From Coniochaeta sp. PMI_546 (lineage: Eukaryota > Ascomycota > Sordariomycetes > Coniochaetales > Coniochaetaceae), in the NCBI GenBank assembly GCA_021432605.1, contig MU271151.1, positions 930,001 through 994,000 of the forward strand: a stretch of DNA of 64,000 nt, written 5' to 3'. This document shows positions 6,926-29,928 of the stretch, piece after piece; position 1 is the stretch's first letter, and every line of letters begins with the position of its first letter. A model generated the notes under the pieces. The model was not told where the DNA came from, searched no databases, and saw only the letters and a list, made by a program, of their open reading frames with translations. The position numbers were made by a program, and so were the translations under genes.

Positions 6926-6929
6926 CAGT

Positions 6930-7310
6930 TTTTGCAATGGTAGATGCAAAAATTGTCAAATCGCTGCCCTTCAAATGCAAGAAAAACACATGTGGCGAAG
7001 ACATGTGCGGCCTGCAAGGAGAGAGCCAGAAAATCCAGTTGCAATGACTGCTCGCACGACACAGAAGTCAAGACGTCTGAGACGATTCTCAAACGATGTA
7101 TGCCGTCAAGCATTTCTTCCGAAAAGGGGAAATCTTGACTCGCATGTCAAGTTCTGCTGAGGCAGGTGCAAGCGGCAGGACGATGACTTTGGCCAACAAC
7201 GAGGGCTTCCGTCGCCTATGCCTATACATGTGTCGGAAAGTGTAGCAACTGTGCTGCAAAGGTATCCCTTGCAAAAGTCATAAGGCAAGGTTAAATGCAA
7301 GGGTTGAAAA
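6930..7310 (+). pseudogene. Possible decayed cysteine-rich coding repeat
   Basis: The pentamer TGCAA recurs about nine times in roughly 370 bases. In alternating forward frames it encodes clusters such as CNGRCKNCQ, TCAACKERARKSSCNDC, CVGKCSNCAAK and CCKGIPCK, spaced like CxxC repeats. No frame stays open across them. This looks like a former Cys-rich tandem-repeat gene, but no family is recognised and chance enrichment is not excluded. Confidence 0.25.
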
Positions 7311-8061
7311 GCAGACGCAGGTGTCGTCTGTGGCCCTGTAGGGGTTGTTCACATAGTATGCGAGGTCAAGATATACGCCAGCAGTCAGCTGGAAGTGTGA
7401 ATCGACAAGCACCGAGACAACGACTGCCAGGCTGATGCACTATACCTATGTAAAGGTGCCTGAGGAAAGGTATGAAATGCCGAAGAAGATACATTCCTTG
7501 CAAAATACGAAAAGGACAAGACTATCGATTCTTGCCAGTACGGGGGACGCCTGTGTGGCGATTTCTTGGCATCGGCTTGGCGTTGAGGAGAGATGCTAAG
7601 ACTTTGTAAAGTGGGATGGCATTCCCCAGACTGTGGACGAGGAAGAACAGACTGCTTCAGCTAGGAGACTGTACGGTCAATGTAATTATGCGCTTGAAGA
7701 TTTGCAATGGCGACAAGACTAGCCCCTGTGCGAGTTGGTGGCGGATCGCAGACAAGAGCGGTTGCGGGATGAATCTTAGGACGGAACATGGCCAGGCATC
7801 AGACGAAATCTCTCTTCTCCATCACTTGACCATTTCTGGCAGCAGATTCCATTTCAGTCAAGAGTCTGGATTGATAGCTCGAGGATGCCGAGAAAGATCA
7901 GATAAAAGTCGCGAATAGCCAAAGCAAGACCGGTGCATCTCAGGCATCGAAGCATGGCGGATCAAAGGGATCTAAATAAGGAGTCTGACTGCCGGGATTC
8001 ATTTGACTGAGGGATCCAGCCGGCATTGATTACGGTGTTGATGAAATGCCGTTGTTACGAA

Positions 8062-8081
8062 GCGTTTTGTTGACGAAACGC
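8062..8081. repeat. Small inverted repeat
   Basis: The arms GCGTTT and AAACGC are separated by 8 bases. Imperfect outer pairing TTACG/CGTAA extends the hairpin. It lies in noncoding DNA and no element could be assigned. Confidence 0.4.
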
Positions 8082-8326
8082 GTAATGCCGAGGAGTGGCA
8101 CGAACCTGGAAGTTCGATTGAGCGCGGCGCAGGGGTCCGGGGGAGCTGACCCGAGGCGGCGGGCCCGATCTCGGGTGTTGATTGGAACGGCAGCATGTGG
8201 GGGATGTGGGGGAAAGCCGAAAACGGCACATGCAAAAAATTCGGGATTTTACCCCGAAGCATCGGGTGTTGAAGGGTGAAATGTAGGAAAGGGCCGGAAT
8301 GATGTCGGGCGCGCGTTCACGCAGGT

Positions 8327-8338
8327 CCACGGCCGTGG
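8327..8338. repeat. 12-bp perfect palindrome CCACGGCCGTGG
   Basis: A perfect self-complementary 12-mer in noncoding DNA. It is followed about 15 bases later by a related CGGCCACGG. It could be a binding site for a dimeric regulator, but this is not established. Confidence 0.35.
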
Positions 8339-9346
8339 CTACATAATCTTCGGCCACGGTCGCCAGTGGACAAAAAGCATTCCGGCGAAGCTTTTCCGTC
8401 TTGACGTCGGGCGCTCGGCATGACTGTTTTGGAGATGAGGGTTGGCACACGAACATGGGCAAATGAAATACTCAACTAGTGTCCATGGTACACCCCAGCC
8501 ACTCGCGCCCACCATATCACGCTCGAGTATGCTGCATTTTCAACTGGCCGGCACACCGTACGGACCTGCCTTGGTGTAAGCTCACTCAGCCTTGGCCGCT
8601 GCAAACAGCGCTTGGTCCTGGGTAAGAAGTGCTAGCGAGACTGTTTCTGATGGGAGCATTCGTACTCTGTCAGGTCGGGTGTGCCGAAAGCTAAACATGG
8701 CCCCGATGACACTAGGTGGTCTCGACCAGGTCTGATATACCTGTTTATGCAGTAAAGACCAAAAAATGGTGTACCTAAATGAGCGAGTGTCTTGCCAGTC
8801 TGCACTTGGGGCGTGCTCGGCGATAATGTCCCGGCTCCAATTTACTGTAGGAGGGACGTCATTACCTAAGCCTAAGTGTACAGGTAGCTACTACCACAGT
8901 ATGAGTAGAATACTACAGCACCTTCAGGCCTAAAACATACGGTCAGTGGTGTGGTGGGTGAGGCTTTTTCCACTGAAACGTGGGATTGACAATTAGAATA
9001 AGATAACTGGATAACCAACCACAGTACACTACCACCAGAGGACACTACTGTAGGTACATGTAGAAAATTGACTCATGTCCCGCGGGGCCCCACTTTCTTG
9101 CCAGATCTGCCTCAGGCTGCCACACGTGTACCCCGCTTAGCACCCACTGTGACATGATGTATGAGGTGAATGTTACCAGGGTACATGCAGCCAAAAGCGC
9201 TGACCTTATCTAATATGAACAGAATGCGCTACCATACGCTGCATGCAAATAGCTATCTTGCCGGGGAAATGGTGGTGGGGGTGAACCAGGTGGGGCACAG
9301 CTTGCCACTCAGGCCATTCGCTCAGGGTCCCTCCGACCGGCACCAG

Positions 9347-9356: not shown

Positions 9357-9516
9357 CACGACTTTCCCCTCCTTCAATCCATGCTTCGTCCTTTCTCACC
9401 ACCCAAATTCTCGGCCCCAGAACAGTCGAGCGTCAGTCAGCCTGCACCAGAAACCCGCAAAGCCTCCTGTCGTATACCTGTCCGAACGTCGACCGCAATA
9501 CCGCAATACCGCAATC

Positions 9517-12086
9517 ATGGTGCGTCCAAGCCTGTGTCCGCCCGTCTCGCCGCTCGGCCAGGTGCCAGCGACACCACACGTGCCCTGCTAATACCGCTAT
9601 TCTGTGTCCAGGCCACGACCGAATCTTTCATGTCCCGGCCCGAGATGGTGAGTGACAGCGACCCAGGACGCGCTGCTCGCCACGCCAACTAATTCGACCA
9701 GCTTGCCCCCTACCTGACTCTCGATCAGAGGGGAAAAATCATTGCCGAGTACGTCTGGGTTGATTCCGAAGGCGGCACTCGGTCAAAGTCGAGGGTGAGT
9801 TCTGTCTCCCCGATGCGTCACCCCTCCGGCCTCGGCGTCTACCGTCGCTTCCCGCCAATTTGACCCCACTTGATCTCTCAAGAACCTCCGTTCCACGCGC
9901 TCGCCAATCAGCGTCGTGCGATTGGAGGTGTCAAGTTGCAGAAGGATTTCGGGCCGCCTTTCCACCCATGAATTTTAGCAAGGCTGACTTTTGCACCCCA
10001 TCCGCGCAGACTCTCGACAAGAAGCCCGCCTCGGTCGATGACCTTCCTATCTGGAACTTCGATGGGTCGGTACCCGTAAAATCATCCCGCGTAAAGTCCT
10101 TGTCGCTAACACATAACAGATCGAGCACCGGTCAAGCACCCGGCGACAACTCAGATGTCTACCTCCGGCCTGTCGCCATATATCCCGTATGTCCTGCTGA
10201 TTCGTACCCCTCACTTTGCACCTGCACTCGGCGAGTCGAGTGTCCCAGCTTGCTCGTAGTCGAGACGAGCTTAGATCCCAGAGCGACTCATTCACGGCAT
10301 CTGCGCACAAAGGACCCAAGACTTGCCCATTGCAGTGGCCTTCTCCTTCTGGTTGTATCAAAACTTTTCGCTGCTCCACGACTGACAAGAGTTACAGGAT
10401 CCGTTCCGGCGCGACCCCAACATCCTAGTCCTCGCCGAATGGTAAGTTTCCTCGCACGACAGACTGAGGAGCCACATCCTGACCGTGTGCCGACACAGCT
10501 GGAATGCAGACGGAACCCCAAACAAGTGAGTGGCCTTTCTCCCTCCGCGAGCCTCCACACCTAGTCTAACATAACATGTCAGGTTCAACTACCGCCACGA
10601 ATGCGCAAAGCTGATGGAGACCCATGCCGATCATGAGCCTTGGTTTGGCTTGGAGTGCGTTCCCTTGCCCTCTTCTAGCTAGGGAGCAAACAACTGACCC
10701 ACAAACAGGCAGGAGTATACGTTCCTCGAACTCTCGGATAGGCCGTTCGGCTGGTGCGTCAACCTCAATCTCACCCACTAACGTCCGCGTACTAACCTTG
10801 ACCAGGCCCGTAAATGTACACCGACCGTGCCCCTACCACCCCCATCTCTTGTCTAGCTTCTAGGAATCTAACAGACCGTGATAGGGATACCCAGCACCTC
10901 AGGGCCCCTACTACTGCAGCGCTGGTGCGGGCAAAGTAGTTTTGCGGGACGTTGTGGAAGCTCATTACCGTGCCTGCCTGTACGCGGGTATCAAAATTTC
11001 CGGCACCAACGCGGAGGTCATGCCGTGAGTAGCCTTATGCCGTGATCCAGTCCCTCTACCCAGCATGCCCGGCCGGGTTCCTCGGAGCCCCGGCCTCTCC
11101 TAATATCTGCATCTCCCTGCCTTGCAACACTCTTTAACACCTGGTAACTACGTGCTAACCCTGACGAAAGTGCCCAGTGGGAGTACCAGGTGGGACCGGT
11201 AAGAACATCTTGCTCGTTTGCTGTGGGATTCGGTAGTCGCTGACTCATGTATAGTGCGTCGGTATCGAGATGGGAGACATGCTCTGGATGAGTCGCTTCC
11301 TGGTAGGTTGATAGCTTTTGTGTATTTTTTGATGCCGCATTACTGACTTTCACACCTTACAGTGTTAGTAATCCCCGAGCCGGTTCCAAGTCTCAGCCAA
11401 CTGCCAGGGACGTACGAGACTGACTATCAATAGTGCACAGAATCGCTGAGCAGTGGGGGGCAAAAGTCAGCCTTCATCCTAAGCCTATCCCTGGTGGTAA
11501 GTATTTTCTTGAGTCGAAGCCATGGTGGCCCGAGATTGGCTAGCCAAAGACTAATCGAGCCTAGATTGGAACGGCGCTGGCCTCCACAGCAACTTCAGCA
11601 CCCGTGAGATGCGGAAGGAAGGAGGCATGAAGGACATCGAGGCAGCCATCAAGAAGCTTGAAGGCCGTCACAAGGAGCACATCCTCGTCTACGGAGAGGA
11701 GAACGATAAGCGTCTGACGGGCCGACATGAGACTGGCGCCATTGATCAGTTCTCGTACGGCGTCGCTGATCGTGGAGCCTCGATCCGTATTCCCCGAGAA
11801 GTCGCTGCCAAGGGATACGGCTACTTTGAAGATCGTAAGTGACCCAGTCCCATACCACACTGCATACAAGATGATCACTGATACTAATACTGCCTTAGGC
11901 CGCCCTGCTGTAAGCAACCATGATTTCTGCGTGCTGAAGACTAAAACTAACTCTATTCCAGAGCAACGCCGACCCGTACCGCATCACCAGCATTATCATG
12001 GAAACGTAAGTAAATCTGAAAATGCCCTTATTGGCGTATCACAGGACTGACAGGTCACCAGCTGCTTCGGTGCCGTGGCGGAGTAA
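9517..12086 (+). CDS. glnA: Glutamine synthetase (GS type II), 360 aa, 19 exons
   Basis: Exons: 9517-9519, 9612-9647, 9702-9794, 10010-10065, 10120-10186, 10398-10441, 10499-10525, 10583-10654, 10709-10753, 10806-10815, 10885-11024, 11171-11198, 11255-11302, 11363, 11434-11496, 11565-11834, 11899-11909, 11962-12005, 12062-12086. They sum to 1083 bases, exactly 361 codons. The enzyme joins ammonia to glutamate using ATP in the cytosol and forms the eukaryotic decamer. Signature segments are [77 protein letters not shown] and FEDRRPASNADPY; length is normal for fungal GS. The first exon is only the ATG. Two exons are 10 and 11 bases, and one appears to be a single T that restores conserved RFLLHRIAE. 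No catalytic residue looks lost. Gene structure is inferred from protein conservation and splice consensus. Confidence 0.92.
11363..11363 (+). other. glnA: Predicted one-nucleotide exon in glutamine synthetase
   Basis: The T at 11363 is flanked by a strong acceptor (pyrimidine-rich, ending CTTACAG, with ACTGAC branch) and a donor GTTAGT. Intron 11303-11362 is 60 bases. Intron 11364-11433 is 70 bases, with its own GACTGAC branch and ATAG acceptor. Joining CTG, T and TGCAC gives Leu-Leu-His, the conserved family sequence. Skipping the T shifts the frame. An alternative donor at 11307 would instead give FLVVHR with one extra residue. Confidence 0.65.
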
Positions 12087-14954: not shown

Positions 14955-16484
14955 GACAACTCGCTGATGATAATTAATCCTCTTATTTGACGCTGTATGC
15001 TCACTACTTGCCATCTGAATTTGGGCACGCTGCGGCCGCAAGCTCGAATCGTGCGTGACAGTAATGCTTAAAAACTGTATGAATTCTTGGCTGTCGGTAT
15101 AGTCGTGAGAATCTTCGTGTTTGTCGCCTCTCTCCTTCGTGGAGTAGCCCAGACTACCAGAAATACCTCCAAGCATAGCGCCAGGACGCCATCCATCAAT
15201 ATCACAACGCCCAAGGAAGGATGTTGTGTTTCTGATTCGGTGTGGCTGGATTTCAATCTTGTATTTGTCGTCGACTCCGCAGCCTCGATTGTAGGACTGG
15301 TACTGTGGCCCTTCGAGATGAAAGAAGACTGGACCGGAGGTGAATCCTGATTAGTAACCTCCGACATCACGATCACAACATACGGCTTTTATCAAGGTGT
15401 TGTGGAATGTCTCTTGAATGCAATACCAGCGATGATGTGGCAGACCTGACGAACGCCGAAATCACCTCTTCACGTATTACTTCTGCTCGTGGCCAATGTA
15501 TTCTCGGCCGTCCGTCTACCTAGTCAAAGTCATTGGTCCTTCGAGGGTGCCCTGTTCATCGTCTTCACCCAGTCTTAACTCACCAGTCATGCAGACTGCA
15601 AGCGAAGACCCTGATATCTCTTTTCCCAGGGGGCTTCTGGCGTTTAGACGATGGTCTTTCTCTGGACTCAGAGGATTGTTAGGTGAGATTTCCATTGCAC
15701 ATTTTGCGTGATTCTCCTCGAGCTGTTCGATATGGGTCTTCAGTCGTTCTGCTTTTTCTTGAGCTGGTTATGGCCGAGGGCGACTCGTCCAAGCATGGGC
15801 ATTTGGAGCCTCAGATCTTGTCGTGGGTGCCCATGGTCTCTTCGTGGCGGCTATGAAACTGAGTGACTTATTGATATGCAGCAATTTCCATAGGCTGAGA
15901 GGCTATTAAGCAGGTACGGTCTACAGGAAAGTTGCGGTTGGAGGCTCGGGACTGGTGGGTGTGGACTGTGGGCTTGGTTACCTGGAGTCGTGAGTCAATG
16001 TGTCTTCCAAGGATGACAGACAGACAAACGGTCTGATTTCACTTCAAGATACGCTCATATGCATTTCTTTCACGGTGGAGGTAGGTGCCTATACCTAACC
16101 CGTAATGTTCGAGGACGGGATAATACCTCTATCACAGAAGGAATGTGATGTGGAGACTGTTGCCTCGACATGAACCGAGATAAAGGCTTGAAAGGGTCAA
16201 GCAACAGTGCCTTTAGCACCTGCTGCCTGCGCTAAGCACACTTGTGGATCGCCTCATCCACCTTGGCCAACAACGACCAAGTCAGGAGTCTTGATGTCCA
16301 AGGCCAAGACTTAGTCGTGTATTTAATCGCACGTCCGCCAATTCTCGAGCACTTGGTTTTTTTTTTCATCTCATACTCCAGCTCTCGAATATCGAGCAAT
16401 ATCAGGGAACTTCGTTAGCACTCTCGGATCTTGTTGCACCCACAACCAATCACACATCTTCTCCTTTCAGCTCAACCACCCGTC
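14955..16484. other. Intergenic region with a possible membrane-protein relic
   Basis: On the minus strand, frames starting near 15697 and 15361 read as a Pro/Ser-rich start followed by a hydrophobic stretch ending VFLVVWATPRRR, then terminate. A joined gene could not be made convincingly. The right part carries the DUF4246-gene promoter, with a T run just before the 5' leader. Confidence 0.3.
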
Positions 16485-18566
16485 ATGCCATACGACAACT
16501 CCGGCTCCGGGCCACTTCGCGTCCCCGGGTTCTCAATGGAGATCGACGCTGACCTGAAAGAAGATTCCCTCCGGCCAGACGGAGAGCACGGTTGCTACTT
16601 CGCAGATGGCATCGAGGGGTGGAGCGGCCAGCGACTGACCGTGCGCGAGATCGCCATGCTCAACCTCATGGAGAGCATCACGGACAAGCCCGACTGGGAC
16701 AAAAAAGTCTTTGACGACGCCATTGTCGACAAGTGGCACGATGAAGCCGTGGCATTGCCCCTGATCAGCGAGCCTGCCTGGAAATGGGTGCTCGCTGAGA
16801 TTCGCGACAAGGCAAACGCTTTCAAAGAGTCCCGGAGAGTTCTCGCTCTGGACAGCAACGCTCGCTGCGTGAAGTCCGATGTACTCGTTGGAGCAGACCT
16901 CAGGGCGGAGCTGATCGCTGGTGTTGCGGAGCTGATGTCAATTCCTGACAGTCAGAAAGACTGGCATCCAGGGTCCAACAATCAAGTTCTGAACCTTGTA
17001 CATCCATCGCTGTACCCTCTGGTATATGGGAGAACCCGTGTCTTGACCAATGGTGGCCGGGTGGCGCTGACCGACATCCTTGCCTCCTGCGGCCAAGGTG
17101 AAGTGGCAGCAAAATCCGAGCATACCTTCGACGATAATTATGCCTGGTCAGCTCGCTTTCAGTGGCTGCCTTGCGAGGTGGAGTTTTCAAGTGGTACGGA
17201 TGGAGAAACTGACGTGCGCATCACGTCTTACATCAACAATCTGCACCCAAATAAACACCGCGGTCTTTATCGCACCATCGAGAAGATCATCAGTCTCTCT
17301 GTGCCGCTGTGGAACGACGTCGTCATGTATGAGGAAGGCGTGCGGACAGCTCGCCGGATCGTCACTTACGGCGCAGAGTGGGAACCCAAATTGCCCGAGT
17401 GGGCTCAATATTCAAATCGGCCGACAAAGACTACCGACCCGAACTTCTCTGAGATTATGCAATGGATCAGGGAGTACCTTGCACTGCCAGACCTACGTGA
17501 GAACGATCCGGATGATGAACCCGAGTTTGACGAAGACAACCTGGACGACGTGGACGACGAAGGCGAAGAGATTGACCTAGGTGCCGAGCATGAGGAGGCC
17601 AGGATTACGACTGCGCAAAGAATCGTTGCTTCACTTGAGCGAAGGCTTGCGCAGATTGAGACAACCCCCGATACTCATTGGGGCCAATTCATAAGCACCC
17701 TGGGAAGTCCGGTAGAGCAAAAGTGGAAGCGGATTCGCTATGTGGCTCATCCAGAGCCAGGCCAATCCTTCACATACGAAGAATGGAAGGATGATGGGGT
17801 GCAGCGACCAATTATTTCATCAGCCGGCGGCTATGATCTGGCGGAACCTTCGATCTCGCCCAAGCAGGTATCACTCGAGAAATGGTTTCGCGCCCAAGGG
17901 CTGCAGGTCATCGTTAAACTGGCCTCAATCGAGCTTACCCCGGAGAACCCAAAGTACCCCGGCGGAAGTTGGCATCTTGAGGGTATGAAGAATGAGCATA
18001 TTGTCGCTACGTCGATCTACTACTACGACGTGGATAATACCACCTCTTCTCACCTGTCTTTCCGCCAAGGTGCCGCTCTGGACGATACGGAGCTGCAGTA
18101 CGAGCAAGATGACCATGAGCCGCTGTCGACTGTTTTTGGGACGGGGAGCATGCGTGACGAACCAGCTGTCCAGGTGATTGGTAGGATTTCCACCCCAGAG
18201 GGCCGGCTCCTTGCCTTTCCAAACACGCTGCAGCACAAGGTCGAACCCTTCGAGCTCTCCGACAAAACGAAGCCTGGCCACCGCCGGTTCCTGGTTCTGT
18301 GGCTGGTCGACCCGCACTTCCGCATATGCTCGACTCGGAACGTGCCACCGCAGCAGCATGATTGGTGGGCTGAGGAAGCGCTGGACGTTGTCGACTTCAG
18401 ACCACTGCCGCAGGAGGTGATAGATATGGTGAAGGGCGAGATTGGAGATTGGCCGATGGGGCTGGACGAAGCAAAGGCTCTGCGGCTGGAGCTTATGGCT
18501 GAGAGAACCAGGGCGACGGAGTCGGTGGAAAGCACCTTTGAAGAGTACAACCTATGCGAGCATTGA
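16485..18566 (+). CDS. DUF4246 family protein, 693 aa, likely Fe(II)/2OG oxygenase fold
   Basis: A single exon. The start is the ATG giving MPYDNSGSG; the longer frame upstream has no ATG. The body matches the fungal DUF4246 (PF14033) family: WHPGSNNQVLNLVHPSLYPLVYG-type segment, WSARFQWLPCEV, and an acidic linker near residues 345-380. The C-terminal part has the elements of a double-stranded beta-helix oxygenase: His497-x-Glu499 in SWHLEG, distal His584 in TLQHKVEPF, and Arg600/601 before FLVLWLVDP. These could bind iron and 2-oxoglutarate. The oxygenase role is my inference; the family has no settled function. There is no signal peptide, so it is probably cytosolic. Length is normal for the family. 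Confidence 0.85.
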   Translation: MPYDNSGSGPLRVPGFSMEIDADLKEDSLRPDGEHGCYFADGIEGWSGQRLTVREIAMLNLMESITDKPDWDKKVFDDAIVDKWHDEAVALPLISEPAWKWVLAEIRDKANAFKESRRVLALDSNARCVKSDVLVGADLRAELIAGVAELMSIPDSQKDWHPGSNNQVLNLVHPSLYPLVYGRTRVLTNGGRVALTDILASCGQGEVAAKSEHTFDDNYAWSARFQWLPCEVEFSSGTDGETDVRITSYINNLHPNKHRGLYRTIEKIISLSVPLWNDVVMYEEGVRTARRIVTYGAEWEPKLPEWAQYSNRPTKTTDPNFSEIMQWIREYLALPDLRENDPDDEPEFDEDNLDDVDDEGEEIDLGAEHEEARITTAQRIVASLERRLAQIETTPDTHWGQFISTLGSPVEQKWKRIRYVAHPEPGQSFTYEEWKDDGVQRPIISSAGGYDLAEPSISPKQVSLEKWFRAQGLQVIVKLASIELTPENPKYPGGSWHLEGMKNEHIVATSIYYYDVDNTTSSHLSFRQGAALDDTELQYEQDDHEPLSTVFGTGSMRDEPAVQVIGRISTPEGRLLAFPNTLQHKVEPFELSDKTKPGHRRFLVLWLVDPHFRICSTRNVPPQQHDWWAEEALDVVDFRPLPQEVIDMVKGEIGDWPMGLDEAKALRLELMAERTRATESVESTFEEYNLCEH

Positions 18567-19993: not shown

Positions 19994-21267
19994 ATGAAGT
20001 TTCCGGCCGTATCCACGGCTGCTTGGGTTTTGTCAACAGCGACAACCGTCGCGGGACATGGATATCTCACCATTCCGTCCAGCCGTACACGCCTCGGATC
20101 TGAGGTAAGTGTCTCATCCGCGATTTCACTGAGACGGTTTAAGGTCTGCGACCGCCGGGTCGCGAAACGCAACTGACAATGCGTGTGCTCAATTAGGCTG
20201 GACTGGACACTTGTCCTGAGTGCACGATCCTCGAACCGGTGTCGTCGTGGCCGAATCTGACAGCAGCTCCTGTCGGTCGCAGTGGACCTTGTGGTTACAA
20301 TGCACGTGTGAGCATTGACTACAATCAGCCTTCCACCAACTGGGGTGTCAACCCTGTTGTGACCTACACTGCTGGTCAGGTTGTCGACGTGCAGTGGTGC
20401 GTGGATCACAATGGTGATCATGGCGGCATGTTCAGCTACCGTATCTGCAATAACCAGGACCTGGTGAACAAGTTCCTGACGCCTGGATACCTGCCCACAG
20501 ACGCGGAGAAGCAGCAAGCTGAAGACTGCTTTAATGCGGGCACTTTGCCCTGCACTGATGTTACGGGTCAGACATGCGGATACAATCCAGATTGCACCCA
20601 GGACCAAGCATGCTGGCGCAACGACTGGTTCACGTGCAACGCCTTTCAGGCCAGCGATCGCCGGGCCTGCGAAGGTGTTGACAACGCCGCACTCGGGTCG
20701 TGCTACACCACCATCTCAGGGGGCTATACCGTGACTAAAAAGATTCGGATCCCCAACATCGTGTCCAATCACACGCTCCTGTCATTCAAGTGGAACTCTT
20801 TCCAGACCGGGCAGATCTATCTATCCTGCGCGGACATTGCCATTGTGGGCGGGTCTGGCACGAGTTCGTCGTCGTCAACCACGCTGTCCACCAGTACCAA
20901 AACGAGCACCACCTCAACAACAACCTCATCAGCTACAACTTCCTGCTCGCCTGTGAGCACAGTTGCCGTTACTTTCAACGAGCTGGTCACCACAGTCTAT
21001 GGGCAGACAATCAAGGTAGTCGGGTCAATCTCTCAGCTCGGTAGCTGGAGTCCGTCATCTGCACCGGCTCTGTCCGCAAGTCAGTACACCAGCTCCAACC
21101 CGCTGTGGACATACACCGTCAGTCTACCAGCCGGGACAACATTCGAGTACAAATTCGTCAACGTGGCCAGCGACGGTACCGTGAAGTGGGAAAGTGACCC
21201 GAACAGGTCCTTCACGGTCCCTTCAGGCTGCCAGAGTGCTGTTACCGTCAACACCTCATGGCGATAA
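19994..21267 (+). CDS. AA13 starch-active lytic polysaccharide monooxygenase with CBM20
   Basis: Exons 19994-20104 and 20197-21267 (393 aa). It is a secreted copper enzyme that oxidatively cuts starch chains. The signal peptide ends at Gly21, so the mature protein starts [11 protein letters not shown], giving the N-terminal His of the copper brace. The second brace His lies in [15 protein letters not shown], and a Tyr in [11 protein letters not shown] may be axial. AA13-typical Cys pairs are present ([20 protein letters not shown]). A Ser/Thr-rich linker of about 35 residues leads to a CBM20 starch-binding domain ([24 protein letters not shown]). Such enzymes work with amylases and are usually controlled by AmyR; I did not find a clean AmyR site. 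The architecture and length are normal. Confidence 0.95.
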
Positions 21268-21530: not shown

Positions 21531-22920
21531 TTAGACGGGGAAGGCAACAGTTCTGCCGAGCGCTGTTGCAACCCATGCACCAACCGTTTCCCTTACAATG
21601 TTGTTACTCGACCAGCTTCTGGACGGGTGGACTCTGTTGGCAAAGTGCAGGAACAGCGTATTGCTGGCTCGATCTATGACCAAGGTGGTGCCGGTGTATC
21701 CCGTGTGGCTGGCCGACAGCAGATTTGCCATCGGACCAGCAGTGTAGTACTGATCCAGCTCGAAGCCGATTCCATGATAAGCTCCCGTACCGAAGCGAGC
21801 ATTAAAGTTTGTGAAAATGAGATCGACCGATTCCTTGGACAGGATGCGCTTACCACCGTAAGTTCCGTTGTTCAGGATCATCTGGCAGAACTTGGCCGTG
21901 TCAAGCACAGTAGAAAACAGCCCGGCATGGCCAGAGACACCGTCAAGACCCCATGCATTCTCGTCGTGGACGGTCCCGCGCACTGGTTGGGGTCGCTGCG
22001 GTTCCTGGTTGCCAAGGACAGTGATCTGGAATTCTTCGGCCGCCATCCGACTGTAGAAGGGGAATTCGGGCCCCTCGATGTTGCCGCGATTGAAGAAAGT
22101 ATCTGGCATCCCCATCATTGAGGTATACTCGTAGATGACGTCGTCGAGGCGCTTGCCAGTGACCTCCTCAATGACAAGCATCATTGTCATGTAGTTGATG
22201 TCCGAATATAAGTAAGCCGAACCTGGTGTATTCTGGAGGGTCTCGTTCAAAATCTGCTGCACACGCGACTCGTAGGTCGGGTATTGAGGCATCCAGAGAC
22301 CAACCGCTGGGTCTGCAGGGAAGCCGCTGGTGTGTGTCATGAGCTGCAGAATGGTGATGTTCTCCTTGCCGTTCGTACCGAAGGCTGGCAGATAGGTTAC
22401 GACAGTGCCGTTGAGGGAGATCAAGCCCTGATCAATGCACCGGAGGCCCGCTACCGTGGTGTAGAGCTTGGTCAGACTGGCCATGTCGTAGATGGTGTCA
22501 ATAGTGGTATCCTCTTGCTCGCCGGGGGGAAGCTTAGTGCCCGTAGACCCATTAACAGAAGCCCACAGATTTCGTTTTCCCATGGCGAAGTGACTGACTA
22601 TCACCCCGTTATGCGCAACGAGAGTGGTACCGCCTGGATGTCAAGGTTAGCACTTGGGCCTATGCATAAGAGCGAACGGATGTAGGCGAACCTGGCTCAA
22701 TAGGAACGACCTGGTTAGAGGTCTTTGAGCCCCAATTCCTCGCCTCGGTGAAAAGGGTGAGGTTGGCGACCATGTCCTCCAATGGTTTGGAGAGCATGCC
22801 TACAGACTCTGGCGTGCCATAACGCAAAATATCCTGTTGACAGTTGCTCTTGGCCAGTGTAGGTGATACAGTTGCCAGCACTGCCGCAGCAATGGCGATG
22901 TTCCGTATGATCGTAGCCAT
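21531..22920 (-). CDS. Secreted beta-lactamase-fold hydrolase resembling AmiE (muropeptide amidase)
   Basis: Exons 22920-22692 and 22633-21531 (443 aa). A signal peptide of about 23 residues precedes a class C beta-lactamase/PBP-type domain: nucleophile Ser129 and Lys132 in ASLTK, Tyr219 in YSD, and HTG at 386-388 in place of KTG. The segment VHDENAWGLDGVSGHAGLFS is the hallmark I associate with the Bacillus YbbE/AmiE branch. AmiE removes the peptide from MurNAc and is encoded beside nagZ and murQ. Here the neighbours are a NagZ-like GH3 and a MurQ fusion, which supports the same role outside the cell. Alternatives are an esterase or D-amino-acid peptidase; the fold supports all of them. It is divergent from the GH3 gene across 767 bases. 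The function is inference from motif and context. Confidence 0.82.
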
Positions 22921-23687
22921 TGTTGATAGGAGGGACAGTTCTATCGAAGCCTCCGCTATTGGGTGCCAAGCTCATGGGGCGGCTGGTGCTGGGTTGTTGG
23001 CTGCCTCTATATCACAAGAAACCTGCGCCATTGTCTACTATCGGCAAAAAGAAGCGAATCCTAGGTAGCATTTTCGTCTTAGATCTCGGATTCTCGAATG
23101 CTACCTATAACTATTGATCATTGTTCCATAGCGGGTTGTCGGACTGCAGCCGATGCACCAGCAAAACGATTCCCCGTGGTGGCGGGGAGGATGCGAACCC
23201 CTGCCCGAGCTTTTCGGTAGTGATTGTCCCGCTCAGCCACCCCTGTGTGTCGCAGCGATATCCGACGTTATGGGTCGAGTCACTGCGCTGTCAGCACTAC
23301 CTTGTACTAGTAAAGTTTAAACCGAGGTGTTGATTGACATCTATGCTGCCAACTAGAGCCTCGACTAGTGCTATTAGTGCTATCGACGTTTGACGGTCAT
23401 TTCGCGTTGAGTCCCGCCAGTTACAGGCTCACAGCTCATTGCTTCTTTGGGAAGGTGAGTAACTACCTACTCAAGCTAGGACGTCGGGAATGCAATGTTA
23501 CATCAAGTTCCTCTTGGAGTCCGGGGACCTAACTCCTCAAATTGTATGAAATTAGGGTAGGAGAGAATGCCGAGTTGTTGAGCGTGCTTGTAATTATAGT
23601 TCCTAAAGTCTAGTACTTGACCGGTGACCCTCGTCCAAGCGATTAATCACTCTGACAAGTGACCACCTCCTACCAGCGACTGCCAAG
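22921..23687. promoter_or_regulatory. Divergent promoter region of the AmiE-like and NagZ-like genes
   Basis: The 767 bases lie between two genes read outward, so both promoters must be here. A tRNA-like patch at 23168-23245 (minus strand) does not fold fully. No TATA box or known regulator site is clear. Confidence 0.5.
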
Positions 23688-24806
23688 ATGCGCCGCACAT
23701 TGTTGAGCGTCTATCTGACTCTCGCCCTAGCATTGCCGGGCTGGGCCAAAGTTCCATCCTGTGTCACCGACAGCGACCTGGCCATACTGGCTGGGGCGCA
23801 CGTGATATACTCGTGGCCCAAGACTATTCCTCCTCCAGACGAGCTCGTGAATCTCGTCCGTGATGGAGTTGTAGGCGGCGTCATCCTCTTCGGGGAGAAT
23901 GTCGGCAACGGAACGGCAACGGCCTTGGCGTCCCTGCAATCCGACTATATATCGTCACCGGCGACAGCTGTATTTAGGAGATACTTCCGAACAAGTGGCC
24001 CTTTGTTCATCACGACCGACCAGGAGGGAGGCCAAGTCCGAAGAATTAAGACTGGGGGACCTTTCCTCACTGCCAAGCAGACGGGAGCATCTCCTGATCC
24101 TGCTGCTGCCGGTACGGAAGCCGGCAAAGAGGCCGCTGCGGCGCTGCTGGGCGACAACTTCAATAGCAATCTTGCCCCAGTTCTAGACATATTCCGACAA
24201 GCAAAAGACTTTACGGATTATTTTCAGCGGTCTTACGGCAACACCTCCGCTATTGTCTCGGCGGCCGCGACCGCATTTATCGAGGCGCAGCAAGGAGCCG
24301 GCATTCCTGCGACGGCGAAGCATTTCCCTGGCCTCGGGTCCGCAACTCACCAGCAGGATACCGATGCTGGGCCCGTGACTCTAAACCTGACCCTGGATGA
24401 GATAAGATCTATCGACGAAGTCCCTTACACCTCAGCCATTGCTGCGGGCCTTGACCTAGTCATGCCCTCTTGGGCCGTCTATCCCGCCCTAGACGACGTT
24501 CCATCTGGGCTTAGCGTCAAGTGGATCACCAAAGAGCTCCGTGGTCGCCTGGGCTTCACCGGAGTGACAATAACGGACGCTCTGGAGGCTGGTGCTCTTA
24601 CGCCGTTTGGCGACCTGCCAACAGTGTCAGTAATGGCTACTCAGGCAGGTATGGATATGCTGCTGGCTAGTCAAAGAAATATAACGCAGGGCGAAGTGGT
24701 CAGATCGGCGCTGATTGCTGCTGTCCGGAGCGGTGATGTTGAATGGAAGGATTTTGTTGCCTCCACGAAGAGAATCCTTGCGCTAAGGAGTAAGCTGTAC
24801 GGCTAG
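23688..24806 (+). CDS. Secreted single-domain GH3 beta-N-acetylhexosaminidase-like enzyme (NagZ-like)
   Basis: An intronless gene of 372 aa with a signal peptide of about 20 residues. It has only the GH3 N-terminal TIM barrel, as in bacterial NagZ, without the C-terminal and fibronectin domains of fungal beta-glucosidases. Visible motifs are TTDQEGGQV, NSNLAPVLDI, AKHFPGLG (Lys211-His212) and nucleophile Asp297 in TITDALEAGAL. The canonical NagZ loop with its Asp-His acid pair is replaced by SATHQQDTDAGPV. As far as I recall, that wording is closer to actinobacterial GH3 proteins, which suggests horizontal transfer. The likely role is removing GlcNAc from MurNAc-containing wall fragments. Chitobiose or other GlcNAc glycosides are possible alternatives. 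It is convergent with the MurQ-kinase gene. Confidence 0.85.
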   Translation: MRRTLLSVYLTLALALPGWAKVPSCVTDSDLAILAGAHVIYSWPKTIPPPDELVNLVRDGVVGGVILFGENVGNGTATALASLQSDYISSPATAVFRRYFRTSGPLFITTDQEGGQVRRIKTGGPFLTAKQTGASPDPAAAGTEAGKEAAAALLGDNFNSNLAPVLDIFRQAKDFTDYFQRSYGNTSAIVSAAATAFIEAQQGAGIPATAKHFPGLGSATHQQDTDAGPVTLNLTLDEIRSIDEVPYTSAIAAGLDLVMPSWAVYPALDDVPSGLSVKWITKELRGRLGFTGVTITDALEAGALTPFGDLPTVSVMATQAGMDMLLASQRNITQGEVVRSALIAAVRSGDVEWKDFVASTKRILALRSKLYG

Positions 24807-25194
24807 CTAGGAGCTGCTAGATGGTGGTCAAAGGATTGCTGGCAAACAAGGACAAAGAATTGAAAAGGGATATGGCGATGTAGCCAAGATTACCCACATC
24901 AAAGACCGATTTTTGCAAACTGAATTACCGTAGCCTTTACTCCCATAATACAGGTGTGGCATATCAGGTTCCTACGCGTAAGAGTCACGATAATGAAGCT
25001 ATCGTCCGTGAAACACAAACCTCGCAAACTCACGACAGCTTTTGTCGGCCGTATTTTATTCGAGAGACCTAGCACTCGCGGTGGTTCATTGCTTCACCGG
25101 CATTGTGATACTGATCCCGCCTCATAGTAGCGTCAAAGAAATCGTCGAAATAATCTTGTTTCAAGAGCTAGATAGCACGCCCATAACTCACTAA
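24807..25194. other. Convergent spacer between the NagZ-like and MurQ-kinase genes
   Basis: The 388 bases hold the 3' flanks of the two converging genes. No further gene is seen. Confidence 0.5.
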
Positions 25195-27413
25195 TTATTG
25201 CATTACATCACTGGTCTCTAGGACTTCACTCAACAGATATCGTGCTCCTGTAAGAGCAGGCTGCGTCACACTGTCGGTCTGCTTGAACTTGCCACACTTC
25301 GCCTCTAGTGCTTCCGTCAGGATGGCTCTGTACAGGTCATTCTGCATCATTCCCCCGGCCAAGACGAGGCCTGACTTGGCAGAATCAATGCCTTGAGCTT
25401 GGACGAGTAGCGACACTAAGCCCACCAGGCTGGCCACTCCTGAGTCAACAATGCGCTTCGCCTCGTCGTTAGAGGTAGCCATTGAAAGGACTGTTTTGGC
25501 GACGCCAGCGATACGCTTGGTAGTCGCGAGAGTGGCATCTTCAGCTTGGTGCTGTGCAGGATCTGGAACGAGGATTGTGCTGAGGAGGTCTCCCGGCTGG
25601 GACTCGGGATATAGGTCCTTGAAATGTTGAAATACTGCTTGTGACAAGGACAGTGTTGGGGAGGCGACTGGATTGTTCTTGCCTGCTGTTATTCGGTTTA
25701 GGTCGGAGGAGTACAGCGCCGTGCGAAGCGCCTCGCGTCCAATGCCATAGCCTGAGCCATCATCGCCCAGAAGATATCCCCAACCACCGATGCGCTGTGT
25801 CCGTCGAAATTGGCCGTGAACGTTGGCGTAGCTCATAGCTATGGATCCTGTTCCAGCAACTACAACAACGACATGATCCAGCTCATTTCCACCACTGACA
25901 GACGTAGGAAGGAGGTCGATGTCGGTTGTGACCTTCAGCTTCGCCCCTAGAGGAAGGCCAAGCAGCTCAGAGAGAGCATTGTCAATCGCCGAGGACAGTG
26001 ACGGTCTATCATAGCCAGCAATGCCGACCCGGGCAGCCAACAGCTTGATGGCTTGAAATCGGCGTCCCTGGGTAGTTTTGCAGCTGTCGACTGCCTCCTG
26101 AATCGCCTGCGATATCGTCGCTATAACAGCACTGACTCCAGCGGTTGTTCTGCCAGAGTTAGCAACAAGTACGGGCATTGGTCCGTTCTCGCGGGTACAC
26201 ATACACGTTGCATGGCCCAGCAATTCCAGTTCCTATCTCTCCGGCTTTTGACATAATCACAGCTTTGCAACTCGTTCCTCCTGCGTCAACGCAGAGAACT
26301 AAGCCTTCATCATCGTCTTGTGTCTGCGCCTTCTGCTCGCGAGCTTCTTCGAAGACGCGAGCGAGTACGCCCTGATTCCTTTGCAGCCGTTCTTCGGCCT
26401 CCATTACAGATACCTTAAGGACAATAGTCACCGCAGCAAGCTTTACGCTTCCGCGGCACGCCTGCAGGATTTGGTCTAGCTCCTCATCCGACTGCGTGCA
26501 AGCGTCACCCCCCACGAACCGCAGGATATTCCTGGCTCGCTGCTTGAGCTTCATATTCGTGGCTTTTACATCAATCATCTACAGTCAAATTAGCCAAAAA
26601 CTGTAATTTCTTACAGTGAATGGAGACACCGACCAGATTTCCGTATGTTTTGCCTAGCTTGATCATGATTCCGCTGCTGATCATATTGAGCACTAGCTTT
26701 GTGGCCGTCCCGGCCTTCATCCTCGTGCTGCCAGTAATTGCTTCTGGGCCGGTGACCGCAGAAATAAGGTAGTCTGCATTTCCTTCAGCTCCAGCGGCGG
26801 AGGGTAAGACACAGACAACTGCGACAGTGGTTCCTCCGAGTGTTTTCATGTACGATAGACCACCGAGCACATACGGGGTGCGGCCGGAAGACGCTATGCC
26901 AATCAAGGAGTCCACCGCAGGATCTACAATGAATGGCCGCAGGTCATCTTTTGCAGCGTCTCGGTCATCTTCTGCACCCTCTTTCGCATGACGAAGAGCA
27001 TAGTCGCCACCGGCAATGAGCGCTATGAACTGGCCTGTTGGAGCCGAGTACGTAGGAGGTATCTCGGAAGCATCGAGAACGCCGAGCCTTTGTCACCAGC
27101 GAGTTAGCCTGGTCACCATCAATGCCAACATCGATCGCACAAGACGAGGCCGAGAGAAGCTAAAACTTATTTACCTGCCACTGGTGCCTGCCCCAATGTA
27201 GAAAACGCGCCCACCCTTTCGCACGCGCTCAGACAGAACATCAATGACCGCTGCAATGACTGGAATGCATGGCTCAACTGCCAAAGGCACCGTTGAGTCT
27301 TCTCGATTGAGGATCCGGCATAGTTCGATCGTCGGCACCCGATCGATACGGGTCGTCCGGGGGTTGCGGTCCTCCGTCTGCAGACCGGCAAGCTGAACAA
27401 CAGGCGTCGACAT
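25195..27413 (-). CDS. MurNAc-6-phosphate etherase fused to a BadF/MurK-type sugar kinase
   Basis: Exons 27413-27175, 27087-26634, 26578-26205 and 26149-25195 sum to 2022 bases (673 aa). Residues ~1-315 are MurQ: GAGTSGRLGVLDASE, ALIAGGDYAL, EGAEDDRDAA, GIASSGRTPYV, GSTRMKAGTATKLVLNM and GKTYGNLMIDVKATN, the SIS-fold etherase that splits MurNAc-6P into GlcNAc-6P and D-lactate. Residues ~325-673 are a BadF/BadG-family ATPase: phosphate loop DAGGTSCKAV (from 329), VVVAGTGSIAM, IGGWGYLLGDDGSGYG and adenosine motif LVLAGGM. This is the family of MurK, which phosphorylates MurNAc and GlcNAc. One polypeptide could therefore do two consecutive steps. The MurQ half also resembles the mammalian glucokinase regulator; the complete etherase motifs favour enzyme activity. 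There is no signal peptide, so it is cytosolic. It is divergent from the transporter gene. Confidence 0.9.
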
Positions 27414-28140
27414 GGCTATGTTGGCACTGACAATCTGGTGTCGGCCAGATCAAGCACCCCTGAGCCCGACTGCAAAGTTATGAGCGTGAGGTATTGTGAC
27501 TACCGGTGCACCAGTCCGTTAGTAATCATGACTTCGAGCTCTGCTGGCCCACTGGCGCGTGACTAAAAAGGATCTACACGAGACGCGACCATTTTTTGAC
27601 GCAACGAGCCATTTGATACCCGCTCGCTGCCCGAGCGCCGCTTATGTCCCCGGACTTGGCCTTCTCCACACTTCAATGTTCGGGTCATTTTGCTCCGTCA
27701 ATGTGGTGCAGTGGCATAAATCCGAGCGCGGTCTCGTATCGTCAGATCTCACTCTTTTTTGAGAGGAGGTCTGTCGCCTTTCCGTGCTTCCCCGCTCAAG
27801 AAAGCGGAAAGATTCCATTGTTCCATCGTGCCATTTCCGTGGGGCGTGGAGGTTTTTATTTGCCAATTGTTCGGCACCGTTGGAAACAGTGGAGAGTGTG
27901 AGGCAAGTCTATCGAACAACGGCAGGACGAAAGCTTGATGAGAACGGTAGGTCGCCCTAGATATAGTGCTTATCACTAGCACTTATCAGGCAGTCAGGTA
28001 ATCCCTCCTCATCTCAGTGTCATCGTGAACTTCGATTGGACTATGTGATATTGTGCATCCCCGCATGTGCATGGGCGTTATCGACCCGCGGTAGTCTCGA
28101 TCTAGAGTTATCTTGTCGATCCCTATCCTGGCAGCCGAAC

Positions 28141-28150
28141 TACACGTGTA
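28141..28150. promoter_or_regulatory. Palindrome TACACGTGTA (E-box core) in the MurQ-transporter promoter
   Basis: A perfect 10-bp palindrome with a CACGTG core, a possible bHLH site. The same 10-mer also occurs near 59576 in the spacer upstream of the aldo/keto reductase, so it is not unique to this cluster. Confidence 0.35.
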
Positions 28151-28167
28151 TGTAACGTATCAGACCG

Positions 28168-28182
28168 GACCCGGTTTGGGTC
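28168..28182. promoter_or_regulatory. Inverted repeat GACCC-N5-GGGTC
   Basis: Five-base arms flank GGTTT, 18 bases after the E-box palindrome. It could be an operator for a dimeric zinc-cluster regulator, but the motif is not a known one. Confidence 0.25.
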
Positions 28183-28386
28183 GCCAGACTCGCCTTCGGT
28201 TCGGCTGTCGGCTTCGACACGACAAACAACTGACTGGACATAGGCCCAAGTCTAGTAGGTCTGATCAATGCGTGGTGCAACATATATGGGGGACTCTGAT
28301 CGCCAATCTAAGAACCATTCTGTCGGATTCCCTCCGCAGGTCAAGGTCACACTGAGACTTTACATCAATCTGTAAACCCCTGCACC

Positions 28387-29928
28387 ATGTCCAACGACAC
28401 CAAGAAGGTGCCTCAGGGCGACGTCATGGCATCTGCTCAGGGCCTGGAACCCCGGACCGAGCAGCAGCAGCAGCAGGTCGACACCCTTGGTCAACCGCAT
28501 TCGTCCAAAATAGTACGCCTCTATGCGCATCCGTGGACACAGATCCTACTCATCAGCTTCATCTGCTTCTGTTTACCCGGCGTAAGTGACCGATACCCCA
28601 GATATGCCGTATCTTCGGTCATACTGAGCCGCCCATGATAGATGTACAATGCCTTAGGCGGTCTTGGAGGATCCGGCCAGGTCGACCCTACTGTCGCCGC
28701 CAACGCCACCGTCGCACTGCTCTCGACCACTGCTGCCACGGCCTTGTTCTTCGTCGGCCCAATCTTCTCATGGGTCGGACCGCGCATCTGTTTCCTCATC
28801 GGTGGTTGGACTTACGCTCTGTATAGCGGGAGCCTGCTGTACTTCAACCATCATGAGCAAGGCGCATTTGTCATTGCCTCAGGCGCTATCCTGGGCATTG
28901 GTGCGTCCTTCATCTGGATTGTACAGGGTGCTATAATGACCACCTATGTCGACGAGTCGCAGAAGGGCCGGGCCATCGCAGTGTTTTGGATCATCTTCAA
29001 TCTGGGCGGTGGTATCGGCTCCTTGGCCTCCTTTGGCCTCAACTACAACTCCAAGAGTGGAACGGTGACGGACTCGACGTACATTGCCCTCATGGTTATC
29101 ATGCTATTCGGATGGCTTCTAGGCGTCTTTATTTGCTCACCTTCGCGGATTCGATTAGCACAGCTCCACAACGCCGTCGAGACAGAGAAGCACAGCGTCA
29201 AGGGCACAATCATGATTGCGATCAAGACCATAAGCAATTGGAGGGTCGCTTGCATGATCCCGCTCTTCTTTTCTGCCAATGTCTTCTACAGCTACCAGCA
29301 GAACAACGTTAACGGTCTGACTTTCAACATCCGCACCCGCTCCCTGAACGGCGCTCTATACTGGATAGCACAGATGCTCGGCGGCCTGATCATCGGCCTT
29401 ATTCTTGATATGCCCTGGTTCAACCGCGGCATGCGCGCCCGCATCGGCTGGCTCGTCCTGTTTGTCACTGGAATGGCCATCTGGGGAGGCGGGTACGCAT
29501 TCCAAGTCTGGGAGAACGATCGTCTTGCCGCTGGCCACAAGCAGGATCTTGACTACAAACAAGGAAGCCTTTCAACCGGCCCCATCTTCCTATACATTTT
29601 CTATGGCTGCTACGACGCGTTGTGGCAGGGATTCGCCTACTGGTTGATTGGTACCGAGTCGAACAGTACCGCGCGTGCTGCCGTTCTCGTCGGCGCGTAC
29701 AAGACCTTCCAGGCGAGTGGAGGGGCAATGGCTTGGAGAATTAATAGTCTTCACGCAAGTGCATTCACTCAATTAGGCATGAACTGGGGCCTGTGTATCG
29801 GATCCCTCATCATTGTGGTGCCTACGGTATGGACTGTTTCGACCCACACCACTGTCGAGGCAGAGGCGGGATATGAGGTGGAGAAGGACTTGCCGCCTCC
29901 GAAGACTGTGGAAGACGTCGAGGCTTGA
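28387..29928 (+). CDS. UNC93-like major facilitator transporter, 493 aa
   Basis: Exons 28387-28581 and 28642-29928, with a 60-base intron inside the first membrane helix (FCLPG / MYNALGGLGG). About 11-12 hydrophobic helices are visible. The helix-1 motif GMYNALGGLGGSGQ and the later YQQNNVNGLTFN and YGCYDALWQ-type segments are those of fungal UNC93-like/DUF895 MFS proteins. A polar N-terminus of about 50 residues contains a Gln run. Substrates of fungal members are mostly unknown. Its head-to-head pairing with the MurQ-kinase gene suggests import of MurNAc or another amino sugar released by the two secreted enzymes to the left; this is inference. No residue that would decide substrate can be read. 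Confidence 0.85.

What the first reader, a model, noticed from the sequence alone, without database searches (positions are those of the whole stretch)
21531..29928. Fungal four-gene cluster resembling the bacterial muropeptide-rescue pathway
In sequence: side by side lie a secreted beta-lactamase-fold hydrolase with the AmiE/YbbE-type VHDENAWGLDGVSGHAGLFS segment, a secreted single-domain GH3 enzyme like NagZ, a MurQ-kinase fusion, and an UNC93-like transporter. They form two divergent pairs. Established: in Bacillus subtilis murQ, amiE and nagZ share an operon for recovering MurNAc from cell-wall fragments; NagZ removes GlcNAc, AmiE removes the peptide, and MurQ converts MurNAc-6P to GlcNAc-6P and lactate. 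Inference: this fungus can digest bacterial peptidoglycan fragments outside the cell, import MurNAc and use it. Fungi do not make MurNAc, so this would be a scavenging system, and I know of no described eukaryotic cluster of this kind.
Basis: partly seen in the sequence, partly recalled or inferred. Interest (0 to 1): 0.95.

Follow-up and report, generated by a model that had tools for sequence, protein, structure and literature searches.

The report
Fungal genes for eating bacterial wall
An ascomycete fungus carries, side by side, genes that look able to strip, import and burn N-acetylmuramic acid, the sugar typical of bacterial cell walls, and two of them sit together in many other fungi, so bacterial wall may be an overlooked fungal food.

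Summary
The four genes are real, spliced and where stated: a secreted AmiE/YfeW-type hydrolase, a secreted single-domain GH3, a MurQ-kinase fusion and an UNC93/MFS transporter, in two divergent pairs. The MurQ half passes NCBI's MurNAc-6P etherase cut-off, and its presumed catalytic glutamates are invariant in fungal homologues. The fusion and AmiE-type genes share a contig in 21 of 31 fungi named in both hit lists; locus tags are 1-3 apart in 7 of 10 readable cases and far apart in 3. The closest bacterial AmiE relative found lies in a NagZ-NamZ-AmiE-regulator-MurQ operon, and 20 of 39 further actinobacterial relatives have NagZ+NamZ or MurQ nearby (19 have neither). The genome also has homologues of NamZ, GH25 lysozyme and the GlcNAc-6P deacetylase and deaminase. 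Two corrections: the GH3 lacks NagZ's Asp-His dyad and belongs to another, actinobacteria-like clade; and in four Xylariales the AmiE and MurQ tags are consecutive, leaving no GH3 between. Best reading: an ascomycete pathway for using bacterial MurNAc, undescribed in the papers I searched. No enzyme activity, transport or growth is shown.

The parts
21531..22920 (-). Secreted AmiE/YfeW-type serine hydrolase, 443 aa; exons 22692-22920 and 21531-22633
   Evidence: model; PF00144 167.6 bits; best NCBIfam model YfeW/PBP4B 144.4 bits, below cut-off 385; SLTK in 118 of 120 homologues
22921..23687 (.). Shared intergenic region of the divergent AmiE-type/GH3 pair, 767 bp
   Evidence: no motif shared with the other intergenic region beyond chance
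23688..24806 (+). Secreted single-domain GH3, 372 aa, NagZ-like fold
   Evidence: PF00933 177.5 bits; PDB hits; fold match to B. subtilis NagZ
24318..24371 (+). KHFPGLGSATHQQDTDAG: NagZ signature region without the D[ST]H dyad
   Evidence: alignment
25195..27413 (-). MurQ etherase-kinase fusion, 673 aa; exons 27175-27413, 26634-27087, 26205-26578, 25195-26149; MurQ part residues 1 to about 311, kinase part from about 317
   Evidence: model; TIGR00274 337.1 bits over cut-off 302; kinase part PF01869 and PDB 8zo3
27414..28386 (.). Shared intergenic region of the divergent MurQ-kinase/transporter pair, 973 bp
28387..29928 (+). UNC93-like MFS transporter, 493 aa; exons 28387-28581 and 28642-29928
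   Evidence: model; PF05978 43.1 and PF07690 47.2 bits on exon 2; no PDB sequence match

Best explanation
The locus is the core of an ascomycete pathway for using muramic acid from bacterial peptidoglycan. Outside the cell, secreted enzymes (the AmiE-type hydrolase, probably helped by the unlinked GH25 lysozyme and NamZ homologue, perhaps the GH3) reduce wall fragments to free MurNAc by cutting glycosidic bonds and removing the stem peptide. The UNC93-like transporter imports MurNAc. The kinase half of the fusion makes MurNAc-6-phosphate and the MurQ half splits off D-lactate, giving GlcNAc-6-phosphate, which the known fungal GlcNAc route (deacetylase, deaminase) turns into fructose-6-phosphate. 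Shown: gene structure, MurQ family membership, conserved presumed catalytic residues, linkage of AmiE-type and MurQ-kinase genes in many fungi, presence of downstream genes. Inferred: every substrate, the roles of GH3 and transporter, and nutrition as the purpose.
For: MurQ equivalog over cut-off; 257 bits to solved MurQ; both presumed catalytic Glu invariant where present (113 of 113, 116 of 116); kinase relative of a MurNAc/GlcNAc kinase, Asp kept in 117 of 118. AmiE-type bacterial relatives: operon L007 and 20 of 39 loci with NagZ+NamZ or MurQ. Fungal linkage: 27 shared contig lengths. Same genome: NamZ homologue, GH25, GlcNAc-6P deacetylase and deaminase.
Against: No enzyme, transport or growth data. 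GH3 lacks NagZ's dyad. 10 of 31 fungi show no shared contig; tags far apart in Aphanocladium, Conoideocrella and Phialemonium thermophilum. 19 of 39 bacterial relatives have no muropeptide gene nearby. YfeW and NagK models stay under their cut-offs. Thr before the kinase Asp, a MurNAc mark in one paper, is not constant (Asn 57, Thr 42 of 120). No NlpC/P60 peptidase found.
Confidence: 0.72

Rival explanations
1. Only the AmiE-type gene and the MurQ-kinase fusion form the functional unit. The GH3 is a neighbour of other origin with another or a lost activity (binding protein, other glycosidase), and the transporter may carry something else. This is compatible with MurNAc use and limits only the four-gene claim.
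For: Consecutive MurQ/AmiE tags in four Xylariales; GH3 lacks the dyad and its bacterial relatives (7 of 150 genomes) are not beside AmiE or MurQ; fungal Ngs1/Nag3 GH3 is reported to be a sensor without hydrolase activity (passages).
Against: GH3 is secreted-type, keeps the TDALEAG nucleophile region and lies inside the cluster; one or two tags lie between in Cadophora and Zasmidium, identity unknown.
Confidence: 0.3
2. The genes act on peptidoglycan fragments, but mainly to remove signals or to attack and compete with bacteria, with carbon gain secondary.
For: Fungal antibacterial wall enzymes are known (CwhA of A. fumigatus, passages of PMC12332128); murQ in ants was interpreted as defence (passages of PMC13320244).
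Against: MurQ and its kinase act inside the cell on a monosaccharide and yield a glycolysis precursor, which fits feeding better than killing (family knowledge).
Confidence: 0.12
3. The fusion is a glucokinase-regulator-like (GKRP) protein or acts on another amino-sugar ether, as its database name 'glucokinase regulator family' suggests.
For: Database names; Pfam GKRP domain match; weak similarity to GKRP structures.
Against: 257 bits to bacterial MurQ structures against at most 69 to GKRP; TIGR00274 over cut-off; both presumed catalytic Glu invariant; linkage to the AmiE-type gene.
Confidence: 0.06

Closest known systems
Bacillus subtilis muropeptide-rescue cluster murQ-murR-murP-amiE-nagZ-ybbC (PMC5061867, passages)
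   Same: MurQ, AmiE-type and GH3 genes together; a NamZ homologue also exists in this fungal genome (that ybbC is NamZ is recalled)
   Different: No PTS MurP and no MurR in the four-gene cluster; kinase fused to MurQ; UNC93-like carrier; GH3 of another clade without the dyad; NamZ unlinked; eukaryotic genes with introns
Amycolatopsis alkalitolerans locus L007 (GH3-NamZ-AmiE-RpiR-MurQ)
   Same: Holds the closest bacterial relative found of the fungal AmiE-type protein (40% identity), next to MurQ
   Different: GH3 there is canonical (DSH) and only 30% identical; MurQ not fused to a kinase
Fungal GlcNAc catabolic cluster with Ron1, Trichoderma reesei (PMC4950302, passages)
   Same: Fungal amino-sugar catabolic cluster with a GH3; its products would finish MurNAc breakdown; genes present at C10 here
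   Different: No MurQ, AmiE or UNC93 gene in the passages read; its GH3 is the GNAT-bearing Nag3/Ngs1 type, 30% identical to the one here
murQ acquired by Camponotini ants (PMC13320244, passages)
   Same: A bacterial MurQ gene expressed in a eukaryote
   Different: Single gene of Mollicutes origin; no kinase fusion or gene cluster in the passages read

Membership tests
MurNAc-6P etherase MurQ | Passes equivalog model TIGR00274 | tested here: met
   337.1 bits against cut-off 302
MurNAc-6P etherase MurQ | Glu in DASE and Glu in EGAED (catalytic role recalled) | tested here: met
   E88 113 of 113, E116 and E119 116 of 116 rows with a residue, of 120
MurNAc-6P etherase MurQ | Releases D-lactate from MurNAc-6P | not testable with these tools
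   needs an assay
MurNAc/GlcNAc kinase (BadF/NagK type) | Fold family and catalytic Asp | tested here: met
   PF01869 53.2 bits over 31.5; Asp in 117 of 118
MurNAc/GlcNAc kinase (BadF/NagK type) | Sugar pocket that admits the lactyl group (no bulky Glu/His; Thr before Asp) | tested here: inconclusive
   GGWG as in human NagK and 8zo3 in 119-120 of 120, but Thr position varies; one paper's criteria
MurNAc/GlcNAc kinase (BadF/NagK type) | NCBIfam NagK_SO3507 cut-off | tested here: not met
   81.3 bits against 370
AmiE/YfeW serine hydrolase | SxxK, Y-S-D and HTG active-site motifs | tested here: met
   invariant in 16 rows; SLTK 118, YSD[LI]N 109, HTG[YF]TGT 116 of 120
AmiE/YfeW serine hydrolase | PBP4B (YfeW) equivalog cut-off PRK03642 | tested here: not met
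   144.4 bits against 385; operon-borne L007 relative also fails at 199.5
AmiE/YfeW serine hydrolase | Direct comparison with B. subtilis AmiE; MurNAc-L-Ala amidase activity | not tested
   the B. subtilis sequence was not fetched; activity needs an assay
NagZ (GH3 beta-N-acetylglucosaminidase) | GH3 domain and NagZ-like fold | tested here: met
   PF00933; B. subtilis NagZ top fold match, TM 0.72 (model built with bacterial NagZ-type rows, pLDDT 70.5)
NagZ (GH3 beta-N-acetylglucosaminidase) | Asp-His dyad, KH[FI]PG[HL]GxxxxD[ST]H | tested here: not met
   KHFPGLGSATHQQDTDAG
NagZ (GH3 beta-N-acetylglucosaminidase) | Equivalog cut-off PRK05337 | tested here: not met
   134.6 bits against 207; canonical L007 GH3 also below at 166.2
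Bacterial muropeptide-rescue operon | MurQ, AmiE and NagZ genes together | tested here: inconclusive
   MurQ and AmiE-type together here and in other fungi; the third gene is a GH3 but not a proven NagZ
Bacterial muropeptide-rescue operon | MurP PTS transporter and MurR regulator in the cluster | tested here: not met
   none among the four genes; MurR not sought genome-wide
UNC-93 transporter family | PF05978 over cut-off | tested here: met
   43.1 bits against 22.9; MFS_1 also over
UNC-93 transporter family | Carries MurNAc or muropeptides | not testable with these tools
   needs an uptake assay

The most novel reading that the evidence does not exclude
Ascomycete fungi hold an old, complete and undescribed eukaryotic pathway that uses bacterial muramic acid as food: secreted lysozyme, NamZ, AmiE-type amidase and a dyad-less GH3 free MurNAc, an UNC93-family protein imports it, and a bifunctional MurNAc kinase-etherase feeds it into the fungal GlcNAc route. 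It would be the first muropeptide catabolism described in a eukaryote and the first sugar substrate for an UNC93-family carrier (both 'firsts' as far as my searches and recall go).
Probability: 0.42. Interest if true: 0.9.

Novelty: new variant of a known kind. Interest (0 to 1): 0.8.

Why it matters
Soil fungi live among dead bacteria, and muramic acid is used as a marker of bacterial wall. If ascomycetes burn it, fungi join the turnover of bacterial necromass, soil muramic-acid budgets need a fungal sink, and fungal lysozymes become feeding enzymes as well as weapons. It would also explain a protein found across many ascomycetes that databases call a glucokinase regulator, and it can be tested with a single gene deletion.

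Tried and rejected
Contamination or assembly artefact: rejected; introns in three of four genes, a 33.5-Mb genome in 24 contigs, homologues in many ascomycetes. GKRP-type regulator: rejected as first reading. Shared promoter motif of the two divergent intergenic regions: none beyond chance (k = 7: 19% of 300 shuffles and 97 of 293 random window pairs as good); AGTGCT repeats seen by eye did not survive this. GH3 as a paralogue of the GlcNAc cluster's Nag3/Ngs1: rejected as its direct copy, 30% identity, no GNAT part here. GH3 having come with a bacterial AmiE operon: not supported. A Cutibacterium paper opened as a possible dyad-less GH3 precedent did not serve: its GH3 has the dyad and its mannosidase is GH5 (passages of PMC6160142). 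Seven literature searches listed no paper on fungal MurNAc catabolism; the one fungal murQ in print that I read is a Monascus annotation placed under chitin biosynthesis (PMC9159588, passage). The library lacks most subscription journals, so absence from print is not shown. Rows dropped: 30 low-identity rows (P0091-P0120) before the contig comparison; 6 of 45 AmiE places were not fetched for (one is L007 itself, five are second places in genomes already sampled).
Full report
What is there. The window lies on contig C9 (930001-994000) of a 33.48-Mb, 24-contig genome. The fungus looks close to Coniochaeta: the MurQ-kinase fusion is 84% identical to that of Coniochaeta ligniaria, and the AmiE-type protein pairs with Coniochaeta sp. 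2T2.1 in a tree (support 96/74). The species was not established. Between 21531 and 29928 lie four genes in two divergent pairs: AmiE-type (-) / GH3 (+), and MurQ-kinase (-) / UNC93-like transporter (+). The second MurQ intron has an unusual GTCGGT donor; homologues reading KTYGNL-M[IV]D across the join support it.

The MurQ-kinase fusion. Residues 11-307 score 337.1 bits against TIGR00274 (cut-off 302), and 257 bits against solved MurQ structures, while vertebrate GKRP reaches at most 69. The Glu residues of DASE and EGAED, which I recall as catalytic, are invariant in fungal homologues that have a residue there: 113 of 113 and 116 of 116, of 120 rows. The second half is a BadF/NagK-type kinase whose best solved relative is an N-acetylmuramic acid/N-acetylglucosamine kinase, 8zo3. 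The catalytic Asp is kept in 117 of 118 rows. The GGWG segment, at the place where passages of PMC10465942 say human NagK leaves room for the lactyl group, is kept in 119-120 of 120, and an Arg just before it, also in 8zo3, in 117 of 120. The Thr before the Asp, a second mark in that paper, is not constant (Asn 57, Thr 42), which counts against leaning on it. NCBIfam's NagK model stays below its cut-off (81.3 against 370). A model of the C. ligniaria fusion has pLDDT 83.7 and pTM 0.56; it was not compared by fold. The best 120 of 7173 hits were listed; the named rows I read are ascomycetes, among them Xylaria, Metarhizium, Cadophora, Zasmidium, Cladophialophora, Trichophyton, Penicillium and Talaromyces.

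The AmiE-type protein. It has a beta-lactamase-fold domain. NCBIfam's best model is YfeW/PBP4B at 144.4 bits, below its cut-off of 385; the operon-borne Amycolatopsis relative also fails it (199.5). E. coli carries yfeW, and B. subtilis amiE, in the murQ operon (PMC5061867 passages). SLTK is found in 118 of 120 listed homologues, HDEN in 113, HTG[YF]TGT in 116. Of 101 near-full-length rows 91 have a hydrophobic N-terminus, against 6 of 113 fusion proteins; this is a crude stand-in for a signal-peptide test.

Bacterial context. A scan of GTDB contigs with the fungal alignment confirmed 8 loci. The best, Amycolatopsis alkalitolerans L007 (40% identity), reads GH3 (5058-6815), a NamZ-type gene (matched at 6863-8041 by the fungus's own NamZ), AmiE (8049-9188), an RpiR-type regulator (9492-10589) and MurQ (10586-11563). 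A GH3 lies near AmiE in 4 of the 8 loci and MurQ in 2 of 8. Of 197 genomes of that class, 37 had a relative at E <= 1e-40 (45 places). I fetched 39 of the 45: 17 have NagZ and NamZ matches just upstream, 6 have MurQ, together 20 of 39; 19 have neither. In a tree of 74 rows the 26 fungal proteins form one clade (100/98). That fits one old entry into fungi, but bacteria were sampled mostly from actinobacteria, so no donor is named, and no MurQ or kinase tree was made.

Linkage in fungi. No fungal genome collection was at hand, so I used contig lengths and locus tags in hit lists. Of 31 fungi named in both lists, 21 share a contig length and 10 do not (hand tally, counted): Coniochaeta sp. 2T2.1, Phialemonium thermophilum (a 2-kb contig), Aphanocladium album, Beauveria bassiana ARSEF 2860, Cordyceps javanica, Cordyceps militaris, Conoideocrella, Pleurostoma, Mariannaea, and Sporothrix eucalyptigena (two different strains). 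A row stands for a 90% cluster and shows its longest contig, so some of the 10 may be linked in other strains; megabase contigs among the 21 show only the same chromosome; and in Purpureocillium lilacinum, counted as shared, another strain's row lies on another contig. Locus tags with one prefix could be read for both genes in 10 fungi: consecutive in Xylaria hypoxylon, X. curta, X. multiplex and Nemania bipapillata, two apart in Cadophora M221 and Zasmidium cellare, three apart in Cadophora gregata, and far apart in Aphanocladium, Conoideocrella and Phialemonium thermophilum.

The GH3. It is NagZ-like in fold: PF00933, best PDB sequence hit a GH3 N-acetylglucosaminidase (6k5j), best fold match B. 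subtilis NagZ with GlcNAc-MurNAc, on a modest model (pLDDT 70.5; three of its four alignment rows are bacterial NagZ-type). It lacks the Asp-His dyad: KHFPGLGSATHQQDTDAG against KHFPGHGDAATDSH in L007. Relatives at 47-52% identity occur in 7 of 150 genomes of one actinobacterial order, after which E jumps from 1e-79 to 1e-34. All 7 carry NTD at the dyad's place, and no AmiE or MurQ match was found in the 10-17 kb fetched around them. The fungal Ngs1 GH3 also lost the dyad and is reported to be a sensor, not a hydrolase (PMC5063960 passages). So this GH3 may be a hydrolase with another acid/base, a binding protein, or specific for another sugar.

Rest of the pathway in the genome. A GlcNAc-6P deacetylase match (C10:657626-658759; 184.8 bits, below the 225.65 cut-off, in split pieces), a second GH3 (C10:660501-661301) and a GlcN-6P deaminase (C10:671331-672225, TIGR00502 293.9 bits over 236.9) lie within 15 kb; by eye the stretch also holds hexokinase-like and Ron1-like genes and a GNAT part behind the GH3 (no family test). 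This matches the published fungal GlcNAc cluster (PMC4950302 passages). A NamZ homologue lies at about C8:1404049-1405419 (PF07075 124.9 and 83.6 bits in two pieces; frames; PDB relatives), and a GH25 lysozyme domain at C14:521781-522257 (126 bits). No NlpC/P60 match was found at E <= 0.001.

Verdict. I judge MurNAc catabolism the likely function (0.72). Kind: a eukaryotic variant of bacterial muropeptide rescue, with a kinase-etherase fusion in place of PTS phosphorylation. Papers: passages were seen of PMC13320244, PMC12332128, PMC5061867, PMC4950302, PMC10465942, PMC5063960, PMC6160142 and PMC9159588; all others only as search listings.

Noticed in passing
genome contig C8, about 1404049-1405419 (L023 8050-9420), outside the window: A secreted-looking NamZ (exo-N-acetylmuramidase family, PF07075) homologue in a fungus, not next to the cluster and with no other muropeptide gene noticed around it.
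   Followed up: partly
L030, L050-L055 (7 of 150 actinobacterial genomes): A compact GH3 clade with KHFPG[LI]G...NTD in place of NagZ's D[ST]H; PDB 5bu9 has a similar NTD. Its activity is unknown to me.
   Followed up: partly
MurQ-kinase residue R475, window 25792-25794 (-): An Arg before GGWG in 117 of 120 fungal homologues, also in the bacterial MurNAc/GlcNAc kinase 8zo3; a candidate partner for the lactyl carboxylate.
   Followed up: no
20197-21267 (+): Gene next to the cluster with a C-terminal starch-binding CBM20; the rest had no Pfam match.
   Followed up: no
Monascus purpureus gene g1905 in PMC9159588: A fungal murQ is listed as part of chitin biosynthesis (passage); it is probably the same protein group as here.
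   Followed up: no
L012 (uncultured archaeon ASS_A1, CP009479.1): A record titled archaeon holds matches to AmiE, MurQ, kinase, GH3 and NamZ within 17 kb.
   Followed up: no
16419-18563, 48141-50216, 50750-52429, 58204-59199: Other window genes: DUF4246 protein, HET-domain protein, aldehyde dehydrogenase, aldo/keto reductase; no sign that they belong to the cluster.
   Followed up: no
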